Origin: Bacillota bacterium
Lineage (GTDB): Bacteria > Bacillota > Bacilli > Paenibacillales > NBRC-103111
Direction of reading: 5' to 3'
NCBI GenBank assembly: GCA_023386955.1
Contig: JAEWIS010000038.1
Coordinates: 248,001 to 312,000, forward strand
DNA length: 64,000 nucleotides
The number at the start of each line of letters is the position of its first letter. Position 1 is the stretch's first letter. The notes beneath the pieces are model-generated. The model worked only from the letters and a program-made list of their open reading frames with translations. It did no database searches and was not told the DNA's origin. A program made the translations under genes and the position numbers. This document shows, one piece after another, positions 10,485 to 12,167 of this stretch.

Positions 10485-10539
10485 TACAAGCAACCCTCCT
10501 TGCTTGCATCCGCCCCAGGTTTTGGCTTCACACATAAAT

Positions 10540-10561
10540 ACCCCTGGCGCGGAAAAAAGTT
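10540..10561 (-). promoter_or_regulatory. Possible ECF (autoregulatory) promoter of the sigma gene
   Basis: About 55 bp upstream of the sigma-factor ATG the minus strand reads GCAACTTTTTT, and 16 nt after the AAC it reads GGTATTT. This resembles the AAC...CGT layout of ECF promoters, with one mismatch in the -10. ECF operons are often autoregulated. Confidence 0.35.
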
Positions 10562-10693
10562 GCGCGATCTTCTATAAAAACCTTTATCTATGTAAGGTAT
10601 GGACGAATTTTTGGAAACATGACATCTGAAAAGGTATGCGCTGCATAACCTTGCAACAATAATTCTAGATGAGGGGTCAAAACTCCTGCTAGC

Positions 10694-10702
10694 TTCGACA
10701 AA
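10694..10702 (-). promoter_or_regulatory. Possible Spo0A box
   Basis: The minus strand reads TTTGTCGAA, a full match to the Spo0A-box consensus TTTGTCRAA, about 210 bp upstream of the sigma-factor gene. A single short box can occur by chance. Confidence 0.3.
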
Positions 10703-10756
10703 AAAGTACATGCCACACAAAACTCCCTCAATTTGGAAAAGAAATGCCTTACAATA

Positions 10757-10784
10757 GCTCTCTATTTATACGTAAGCAGAGAGC
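10757..10784. repeat. Intergenic hairpin
   Basis: A perfect 7-bp stem (GCTCTCT/AGAGAGC) with a 14-nt loop lies between the candidate small RNA and the sigma-factor gene. No U-tract follows. I see no gene in the rest of 10485-11078 beyond the sites listed. Confidence 0.4.
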
Positions 10785-10865
10785 ATTAGGGTGCAATCCC
10801 GGAATATTTTCGGAATTAAATTCGGCGGAAGTTTCCCTGTAAGGGTTCCATACCCGTCTTTGGCC

Positions 10866-10894
10866 AAAAAAAAACCGCCGTTCACACGGCGGGT
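10866..10894 (-). terminator. Terminator of the candidate small RNA
   Basis: Stem CCGCCG/CGGCGG with loop TGTGAA, extended by A-U pairs, followed on the minus strand by nine Ts. Confidence 0.85.
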
Positions 10895-10938
10895 GCACAT
10901 TGTGCAATTCGGATAGGAGTGGAGAGAAACCATACTGT
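10866..10938 (-). ncRNA. Candidate small RNA of about 73 nt
   Basis: A transcript is predicted from a perfect consensus promoter (listed separately) to a strong terminator. It starts with an unstructured pyrimidine-rich stretch containing TTTCTCTCCACTCC, followed by a small hairpin (TGCAC-AAT-GTGCA) and the terminator stem CCGCCG/CGGCGG with nine Us. The only reading frame starts at an ATG without a ribosome site and runs through the terminator, so it is probably not coding. The C/U-rich stretch is complementary to Shine-Dalgarno-like sequences, which suggests a trans-acting regulator. It could instead be an attenuated leader of the sigma-factor gene, about 380 bp downstream. Confidence 0.6.
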
Positions 10939-10944
10939 ACTTTT

Positions 10945-10973
10945 ATTATATGTATCCGTTTTCAATCTGTCAA
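10945..10973 (-). promoter_or_regulatory. Consensus sigma-A promoter of the candidate small RNA
   Basis: The minus strand has TTGACA at 10973-10968, a 17-nt spacer and TATAAT at 10950-10945, a full 12/12 match to the sigma-A consensus. Transcription should begin near 10938. It lies about 60 bp after the terminator of the hisC-tyrA unit, so it is an independent promoter. Confidence 0.85.
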
Positions 10974-11033
10974 CCCTTTTTTGAAAACGATTCCTTTTTT
11001 AGTTGGTTGCATTATCGCCACCCATCCGCCAGG

Positions 11034-11070
11034 AAAAAAGCTCCTTCGAAAGAGACATCCGAAGGAGCTT
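11034..11070 (-). terminator. Terminator of the hisC-tyrA unit
   Basis: A perfect 11-bp stem (AAGCTCCTTCG/CGAAGGAGCTT) with an 11-nt loop is followed on the minus strand by a run of Ts, 9 bp after the tyrA stop. Confidence 0.9.
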
Positions 11071-11078
11071 CCCATGGG

Positions 11079-12167
11079 TTACATGTGTATCGGGTAATGG
11101 GTTTTCAGCAGTTCCACGGCACGGTCCTGATCCGCCTGGTTGCGGAAGCTCAGCCGCAGGATACCCGGCACATCAGCACGGCTTTCAATAATTTGGATAT
11201 TGCTCAGATTGACCCGCTGATCGCCCAAGATGGAGGCGATATGCCCGATAATGCCCGGATGGTCGGGAACATCCACGTATACGTCATACAGCGACGTCAG
11301 CACACCCTTGCGGCGCTCCGGCAGACGGCTGCGGAATTCCCTGGCTGAGCCGAAGGCATTCTCGATTCCGTCGCCATCCTCATATTCCAGCATCTGCGCG
11401 AAGCGGTCCATTTCCAGACCCCAGTCCTTCAACAGACGCAGCACCACCCGTCTGTTGTTCAACAGAATGTCCCGCCAGATGCCCGGTTCACTGGAGGCAA
11501 TCCGGGTAATATCCCGGAAGCCGCCCGCGGCGAGCGACTCATACAGGGAGTCCTCCCGGTTATAACCGGCGATCTGGTTCACCAGCGCCACTGCAATAAT
11601 GTGGGGCAAATGGCTGATAGCCCCTACAATATCGTCATGCTGCCGTGCATCCACCCGAACAATCTGCGCCTTGGTCAACCGGAGAAGCTCCTCCAGGCGG
11701 CCATAAATTTCCTCCGGCACTTGCTCCGAGGGAGTCAGCACGTAGAAGGCGTTTTCGTAGAGATGGGACGAAGCCGCCTCCACCCCGGAGCGCTCCGAAC
11801 CGGCCATAGGATGGCCACCGATAAACCAGGCGCCTTTCCAATCCAGGCGCGAGGCAGTTTCCGCTACCGAACCTTTTGTGCTGCCTACATCGGTGATGAT
11901 GCAACCGGGTTTCAGATCGAAGGTTTGGAGCTCCAAGAGGTATTCCTCCAGATTGCCCACGGGCACACACAGGAAGATAAAATCTGCCCCCTCCGCCGCC
12001 TCCCGCATGGAGGTGGTTGCGGAATCCACCACCTCCCGCTTCAGATACTTATCCACGGATGCTTGGCTCCGGGAATGGCCGACAACATGGAGACCCGGTT
12101 TGCCCTTGAAGCATAAAGCCAAAGAGCCGCCCATCAAGCCTACGCCGAAAATCGTGATTTTGGTCAT
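11079..12167 (-). CDS. tyrA: Prephenate dehydrogenase
   Basis: Oxidative decarboxylation of prephenate to 4-hydroxyphenylpyruvate, the committed step of tyrosine synthesis. The 362-residue product has the NAD loop FGVGLMGGSLA (residues about 5-15), the motif GGHPMAGSERSG (about 117-128) and a C-terminal ACT domain (about 293-362) of the kind that binds tyrosine for feedback control. Its ATG overlaps the hisC stop by 4 nt. In B. subtilis aroE (EPSP synthase) follows tyrA; here a terminator follows instead. Confidence 0.96.
   Translation of the reverse strand: MTKITIFGVGLMGGSLALCFKGKPGLHVVGHSRSQASVDKYLKREVVDSATTSMREAAEGADFIFLCVPVGNLEEYLLELQTFDLKPGCIITDVGSTKGSVAETASRLDWKGAWFIGGHPMAGSERSGVEAASSHLYENAFYVLTPSEQVPEEIYGRLEELLRLTKAQIVRVDARQHDDIVGAISHLPHIIAVALVNQIAGYNREDSLYESLAAGGFRDITRIASSEPGIWRDILLNNRRVVLRLLKDWGLEMDRFAQMLEYEDGDGIENAFGSAREFRSRLPERRKGVLTSLYDVYVDVPDHPGIIGHIASILGDQRVNLSNIQIIESRADVPGILRLSFRNQADQDRAVELLKTHYPIHM

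What the first reader, a model, noticed from the sequence alone, without database searches (positions are those of the whole stretch)
10866..10973. Unannotated small RNA with a perfect consensus promoter
On the minus strand TTGACA, a 17-nt spacer and TATAAT (12 of 12 bases) are followed about 43 nt later by a short hairpin and a strong terminator, so a stable transcript of about 73 nt is predicted. Its 5' part is single-stranded and C/U-rich (TTTCTCTCCACTCC), which is complementary to ribosome-binding sites, a feature of several trans-acting Firmicute sRNAs. Promoter strength argues for high expression. An attenuated leader of the sigma-factor gene downstream is the main alternative.
Basis: partly seen in the sequence, partly recalled or inferred. 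Interest (0 to 1): 0.75.

Follow-up and report, generated by a model that had tools for sequence, protein, structure and literature searches.

The report
CcpA-linked small RNA of Bacilli
A predicted 73-letter small RNA beside tyrA is almost unchanged in nearly every Paenibacillus-type genome examined and in many other Bacilli; its promoter carries the binding motif of the sugar-response repressor CcpA, and its C/U-rich front end looks built to block ribosome-binding sites, perhaps that of a sugar phosphatase.

Summary
In detail: on the minus strand a 12-of-12 promoter drives a predicted 73-nt RNA (10938-10866) with a strong terminator. It belongs to a widespread family without an Rfam match. 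Its 5' 27-mer (at most 3 mismatches) is in 388 of 392 genomes of the order, a 22-mer core in 127 of 299 of the class. The leader-of-sigma alternative fails: of 83 order loci, 7 have sigma on the other strand and 13 none in reach. Best model: CcpA represses the RNA on preferred sugars; otherwise its 5' end pairs with ribosome-binding sites and blocks translation. Best candidate target: a Cof-type HAD-IIB phosphatase, whose ribosome-binding site matches the RNA inside and outside the window's family through different stretches, although two genomes without the RNA pattern show part of it too. Expression, CcpA binding and targeting are untested.

The parts
10968..10973 (-). -35 hexamer TTGACA
   Evidence: conserved in relatives
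10945..10950 (-). -10 hexamer TATAAT
   Evidence: conserved
10951..10965 (-). cre-like CcpA operator in the promoter spacer (TTGAAAACGGATACA, full match to WTGNAANCGNWNNCW; consensus recalled)
   Evidence: 80 of 83 order loci have a match in -75..+10
10981..10995 (+). second cre-like site upstream of -35 (TTGAAAACGATTCCT)
10866..10938 (-). predicted sRNA, 73 nt
   Evidence: promoter and terminator, alignment A1; model R1 scores it 89 bits, but it is one of the model's own sequences
10911..10938 (-). invariant 28-nt C/U-rich 5' block, proposed seed, complementary to ribosome-binding sites
   Evidence: invariant in 53 distinct transcripts except one change at position 2; 27-mer in 388 of 392 order genomes
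10894..10906 (-). small hairpin SL1 (TGCAC-AAT-GTGCA); replaced by other sequence in some relatives
10866..10892 (-). intrinsic terminator (7-bp stem, 9 T)
   Evidence: two stem pairs with changes on both sides
11037..11070 (-). terminator-like hairpin after the upstream gene tyrA (11-bp stem then T run), suggesting that the sRNA is its own unit
   Evidence: read from the sequence; not listed by the scan, whose loop limit is 8

Best explanation
A free-standing, trans-acting small RNA of about 73 nt made from a consensus sigma-A promoter that CcpA represses through cre operators in and next to the promoter. On preferred sugars CcpA keeps it off; when they run out it accumulates. Its single-stranded 5' end (ACAGUAUGGUUUCUCUCCACUCCUAUCC) is the antisense of a good ribosome-binding site (AGGAGUGGAGAGAAACC followed by AUR) and pairs with the Shine-Dalgarno and start region of target mRNAs, blocking translation. 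One conserved target is probably a Cof-type HAD-IIB (sugar) phosphatase. Shown: sequence, conservation, operator motif, target complementarity. Inferred: transcription, CcpA binding and its sign, pairing, repression.
For: 27-mer in 388 of 392 order genomes and 22-mer in 127 of 299 class genomes, one place per genome except two in G615, no reversed-pattern control hits. Invariant 5' block beside a sequence-variable 3' part whose stems form standard pairs in 93.9% of cells (shuffles 87.6%) with covariation score 0.208 (shuffles 0.071). cre in 80 of 83 order promoters against 5 of 5819 control windows. In 59 other-order loci, a promoter of at least 9 of 12 in 59 (random sites 14 of 265) and a strict terminator in 34 (random 3 of 265); cre in 10 of 59 promoters and in 12 of 59 near +60 (control 2 of 3075 windows). 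HAD phosphatase: GGAG[AT]G[AG] in 20 of 23 and 14 of 20 orthologues against 7 of 556 background genes; median z against 60 shuffled seeds -4.03 and -2.71 against -0.03.
Against: No expression data. Loci are related by descent, so counts are not independent. Two of five covariation measures do not exceed shuffles (pairs with a change on both sides 2 against 2.8; further pair types 5 against 7.7). No cre match in 49 of 59 other-order promoters, and the stricter consensus TGWNANCGNTNWCA matches 0 of 83 and 1 of 59. In one other-order genome (71% of its main contig) the best duplexes lie within the range of 12 shuffled seeds. The HAD gene was found by searching for the complement. Both HAD genes from genomes without the RNA pattern also have GGAGAG (z -2.8, -2.0), and 6 of 13 from other-order genomes with the RNA score above -1.5. 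One other family (lipoate-protein ligase, n=14) scores as strongly.
Confidence: 0.7

Rival explanations
1. Attenuated leader of the ECF sigma-factor gene: the terminator gates read-through into it.
For: Sigma gene on the same strand downstream in 63 of 83 order loci; it is the next gene in the window.
Against: Opposite strand in 7 and none in reach in 13 of 83 order loci; in other orders found in only 14 of 59, 0.5-2 kb away (reach is short in 3-kb loci). The consensus fold shows only the two hairpins and a 3-bp pairing; alternative folds were not tested.
Confidence: 0.05
2. Sponge or sRNA partner: the C/U-rich block captures a G-rich sRNA or another mRNA region, as RosA and RsaI pair with other sRNAs, rather than blocking ribosome-binding sites.
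For: CcpA-controlled sponges exist (PMC8216469 passages). No target shared by all genomes was found.
Against: RosA and RsaI use G-rich regions against C-rich partners; this RNA has the C-rich side. HAD ribosome-binding sites match it.
Confidence: 0.1
3. Short open reading frame beginning MVSLHSYP near the 5' end, the conserved product being a peptide.
For: An ATG lies a few bases after the predicted start and the block can be read in frame.
Against: Third codon positions are invariant, there is no room for a Shine-Dalgarno, and the ATG is lost in related loci (TTCTGG and GTCTGA variants).
Confidence: 0.02
4. Regulated by another LacI-family repressor, not CcpA; the sRNA part of the model stands.
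For: LacI-family operators share the central CG (recalled).
Against: Full matches to the B. subtilis cre consensus (recalled) in 80 of 83 order promoters, and at different positions in part of the other orders.
Confidence: 0.12

Closest known systems
RsaI (RsaOG), Staphylococcus aureus
   Same: Stand-alone sRNA reported as CcpA-regulated, with a C-rich region that binds mRNA (PMC8216469 passages)
   Different: No Rfam match here (that RsaI is an Rfam family is recalled); RsaI has two G-rich regions for other sRNAs and is reported conserved in Staphylococcus but not in Bacilli
RosA (S345), Bacillus subtilis
   Same: CcpA-repressed stand-alone sRNA (PMC8216469 passages)
   Different: RosA is a sponge of RoxS and FsrA with G-rich regions and a predicted CcpA site at -1 to +12; this RNA is C/U-rich with cre in the promoter
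RoxS/RsaE
   Same: C-rich seeds that pair with mRNAs (pairing at ribosome-binding sites recalled)
   Different: No Rfam match here; RoxS is controlled by ResDE and Rex and RsaE has UCCCC motifs
SgrS-yigL, Escherichia coli
   Same: Sugar-responsive sRNA acting on a HAD-type phosphatase mRNA (PMC4021124 passages)
   Different: SgrS stabilises yigL mRNA by pairing upstream of the coding region; here pairing covers the ribosome-binding site and predicts repression; no sequence relation seen

Membership tests
Any Rfam 15 family | Covariance model score at or above gathering cut-off | tested here: not met
   0 matches in the window; 3 matches with E up to 5 in 10500-11090, all below cut-off and on the plus strand
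CcpA regulon | cre consensus in the promoter region | tested here: met
   two full matches; 80 of 83 order loci; the stricter consensus TGWNANCGNTNWCA is not matched
CcpA regulon | CcpA binding and glucose response | not testable with these tools
   needs EMSA or ChIP and a ccpA deletion
Trans-acting base-pairing sRNA | Own promoter and terminator, no conserved reading frame, conserved unpaired seed | tested here: met
Trans-acting base-pairing sRNA | Conserved complementarity to a distant mRNA | tested here: inconclusive
   strong for the HAD phosphatase within the order, mixed outside it
Trans-acting base-pairing sRNA | Expressed and acting on an mRNA in the cell | not testable with these tools
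   no transcript data were available
RsaI / RosA sponge | G-rich regions pairing with C-rich sRNAs | tested here: not met
   the invariant block is C/U-rich
Leader or attenuator of sigma gene | Constant position upstream of the gene on the same strand | tested here: not met
   63 same strand, 7 opposite, 13 none in reach of 83

The most novel reading that the evidence does not exclude
An undescribed carbon-control sRNA of the class Bacilli, nearly invariant across the order of Paenibacillus, that acts as a mobile anti-Shine-Dalgarno: under CcpA control it tunes translation of many mRNAs with AGGAGUGGAGAGAAACC-like ribosome-binding sites, sugar phosphatases foremost, forming a second, post-transcriptional layer of catabolite control.
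Probability: 0.3. Interest if true: 0.85.

Novelty: new member of a known kind. Interest (0 to 1): 0.65.

Why it matters
If true, Paenibacillus and part of the class Bacilli share an sRNA with an unusually constant seed that no Rfam family matches and that the listings of searches did not describe. It would give these bacteria a post-transcriptional arm of carbon catabolite control and a concrete target to test. It would also show an operator motif that stays with an sRNA gene while sitting in the promoter spacer, at -35, or near the terminator hairpin.

Tried and rejected
(1) Rfam: no match at cut-off. (2) Full-length antisense target: the 27-mer (3 mismatches) or 22-mer (2) finds at most one place per genome, two in G615; the loci read are the sRNA gene. 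(3) 14-mer with G-U pairs in 7 genomes: 35 matches, 7 of them the sRNA itself, so 28 against 10 reversed-control hits; few lie at gene starts. (4) MFS transporter, seen in 3 genomes: of 30 homologue loci 14 could be read, 3 with GGAGTGG, so not a general target; 16 were not read. (5) GGAGTGGAGAG 2-16 before ATG in 59 genomes: 59 matches in 32 genomes against 14 control hits; few genes recur in the 30 loci read. (6) Duplex scan of 1723 predicted genes in 1.92 Mb of one other-order genome: best -33.1 kcal/mol (an amino-acid kinase with ACT domains), a little above the mean but within the range of 12 shuffled seeds. The spacer motif ranks 1 of 105 permutations, but on 2 genes. (7) GGAGAGAAACCATG in 198 genomes: 40 hits against 2 reversed-control hits; 30 loci read, 3 without a real gene after the ATG; HAD phosphatase 6, DUF4127-like 3, Wzy_C-type 3. 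The reversed pattern is not ribosome-binding-site-like, so the excess is no proof. (8) Phylum: 4 core hits beyond the order against 4 control hits, without evident promoter or terminator. (9) Viral contigs: 0 exact 19-mers.

Full report
What is there. On the minus strand, TTGACA (10973-10968), 17 nt and TATAAT (10950-10945) precede a predicted start at A10938, a 28-nt C/U-rich block, a small hairpin and a 7-bp terminator with nine T. The predicted RNA is 73 nt. Its 5' block is mostly unpaired in the minimum-energy fold and, apart from three invariant pairs, in the consensus fold. The gene before it is tyrA, which has its own terminator-like hairpin (11070-11037, read). The next gene is an ECF-type sigma factor, followed by a zinc-finger protein (Pfam; the ECF label is recalled). 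I treat G001's family as the window's (inference).

Conservation. Of 62 loci fetched by TyrA, 57 hold the promoter followed by the block and a terminator; the window makes 58. The two Cohnella loci without it, L033 and L048, come from genomes that hold it just outside the fetched stretch or on another contig (8 of 8 genomes, one exact copy each). Among 53 distinct transcripts, positions 1-28 are invariant except one change at position 2, while most of the rest varies. In 33 of the 53, chosen for a canonical first hairpin, two terminator pairs keep pairing through changes on both sides (AU/GC; CG/UA/GC/AU). There are 29 such cells against 9.2 in shuffles and a covariation score of 0.208 against 0.071, but the number of such pairs (2 against 2.8) and of further pair types (5 against 7.7) does not exceed shuffles. 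The first hairpin hardly varies there; in some other rows of A1 its sequence is quite different.

Distribution. The 27-mer with at most 3 mismatches is in 103 of 104 genomes of the family (100 exact, two with 1 mismatch, one with 3; miss G069) and in 388 of 392 of the order (misses G069, G117, G130, G136), one place per genome, with no reversed-pattern hits. In the class, 127 of 299 genomes hold a 22-mer core with at most 2 mismatches, again without control hits; 172 do not. In the phylum sample 11 of 398 have the exact 15-mer core: 7 are genomes that one search had as members of the order, and 4 others equal the 4 control hits and show no evident promoter or terminator. In 59 distinct other-order loci a promoter of at least 9 of 12 lies before the block in 59 (random sites 14 of 265), and a strict terminator pattern follows in 34 (random 3 of 265). 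Of 10 other-order loci whose reading frames I printed, 7 have an EPSP-synthase-like gene upstream (by motif; one checked by Pfam, L106) and one a TyrA-like gene. So the place at the end of aromatic-synthesis genes is partly kept.

CcpA operators. The spacer holds TTGAAAACGGATACA, a full match to the cre consensus WTGNAANCGNWNNCW (recalled); a second full match lies just upstream on the other strand, and the 64 kb holds only one more. Over 83 distinct loci of the order, 80 promoter windows (-75..+10) match, against 5 of 5819 windows elsewhere in the same loci; the misses are L018, L024 and L075. The stricter TGWNANCGNTNWCA matches 0 of 83. Inside the conserved spacer the variable positions (-24, -21, -18) are ones that the consensus leaves free; two further free positions are constant. 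In other orders 10 of 59 have a match in the promoter (control 2 of 3075 windows) and 12 of 59 have one near +60, at the terminator hairpin. Loci are related, so these are not independent events, but recurrence at different positions points to retained CcpA control in part of the class.

Not a leader, not a peptide. The sigma gene follows on the same strand in 63 of 83 order loci, lies on the opposite strand in 7 and is not in reach in 13; in other orders 14 of 59 have it within reach (reach was as little as 1.2-1.5 kb in short loci). A peptide is unlikely: third codon positions are invariant and the ATG is lost in related loci.

Targets. The complement of the block reads AGGAGUGGAGAGAAACCAU, a good ribosome-binding site. 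Exact GGAGAGAAACCATG occurs 40 times in 39 of 198 order genomes (2 reversed-control hits). Of 30 loci read, 6 are one gene, and by position a seventh hit, in G161, precedes it too: a Cof-type HAD-IIB phosphatase (Pfam Hydrolase_3; NCBIfam TIGR00099 above cut-off, YidA model below cut-off). I then took its orthologues regardless of motif. Outside the window's family, one search found it in 80 of 99 order genomes and gave the 30 best loci; 26 passed my gene caller, and dropping 3 genomes that bear the exact motif leaves 23: GGAGAG in 22, GGAGTG in 0. In the window's family (64 of 89 genomes) I took 20 upstream pieces, picked for spread: GGAGTG in 11, GGAGAG in 5. These are overlapping but different stretches of the complement. 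Background: GGAGAG 9 and GGAGTG 6 of 556 genes. Median z against 60 shuffled seeds is -4.03, -2.71 and -0.03. Against this: of 13 orthologues from other-order genomes with the RNA, 7 reach z -1.5 and 6 do not, while both orthologues from genomes without the pattern do. Among 14 gene families with at least 8 members, a lipoate-protein ligase (Pfam) upstream of the HAD gene scores as strongly (median z -5.09, n=14) and the other 12 lie between -0.64 and +0.72. I hold the sRNA at about 0.95, CcpA control at about 0.85, ribosome-binding-site pairing at about 0.75 and the HAD target at about 0.5.

Mechanism. CcpA with HPr-Ser-P (recalled) would occupy the promoter on preferred sugars. When it leaves, the strong promoter fires and the RNA blocks its targets. 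For a sugar phosphatase this makes a double negative: phosphatase made when sugar-phosphates are plentiful, withheld when they are scarce. The substrate of this phosphatase is not known. E. coli SgrS also acts on a HAD phosphatase mRNA, by stabilising it (PMC4021124, passages).

Known systems. RosA and RsaI are CcpA-controlled sRNAs (PMC8216469, passages; RsaI and RsaE also in PMC9217828, passages) but have G-rich regions for other sRNAs. No paper text in the library holds the 16-mer, and the two papers with the complement of the 14-mer core are unrelated by title. Searches on Paenibacillus or Brevibacillus with small RNA and CcpA showed no description in the listed rows (listings only: with 20 of 136, 58, 95 with 10 of 86). 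The library lacks most subscription papers, and P. riograndensis RNA-seq reports unnamed small RNAs that could include it (PMC5670726, passages).

Noticed in passing
L147 and L148 (genome G615): Two copies of the core in one genome with different promoters; L148 has a cre match near +61, L147 none.
   Followed up: no
L161, promoter spacer: The stretch between -35 and -10 contains AGGAGTGGAGAGG, the complement of the sRNA's own seed.
   Followed up: no
L134, L148, L152-L160, L162, about +60: A cre match lies at the terminator hairpin, which could let CcpA bridge promoter and terminator.
   Followed up: partly
L408, L410, L414, L419: Lipoate-protein-ligase gene (Pfam for L408) upstream of the HAD phosphatase on the same strand; its start region (GGAGGAATGACCATGCTG in most) is also strongly complementary to the sRNA 5' end.
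   Followed up: partly
window 10757-10784: Hairpin GCTCTCTATTTATACGTAAGCAGAGAGC between the sRNA and the sigma gene; no Rfam match.
   Followed up: no
window 39989 (-): GGAGAGGGGGAAGGAACCATG, a ribosome-binding-site-like stretch partly complementary to the sRNA.
   Followed up: no
L361-L363, L389, L367: Further genes with exact GGAGAGAAACCATG: DUF4127-like (3 genomes, Pfam for L363), lactose/cellobiose PTS IIA, GlpX fructose-bisphosphatase; a carbon-metabolism flavour, not tested for conservation.
   Followed up: partly
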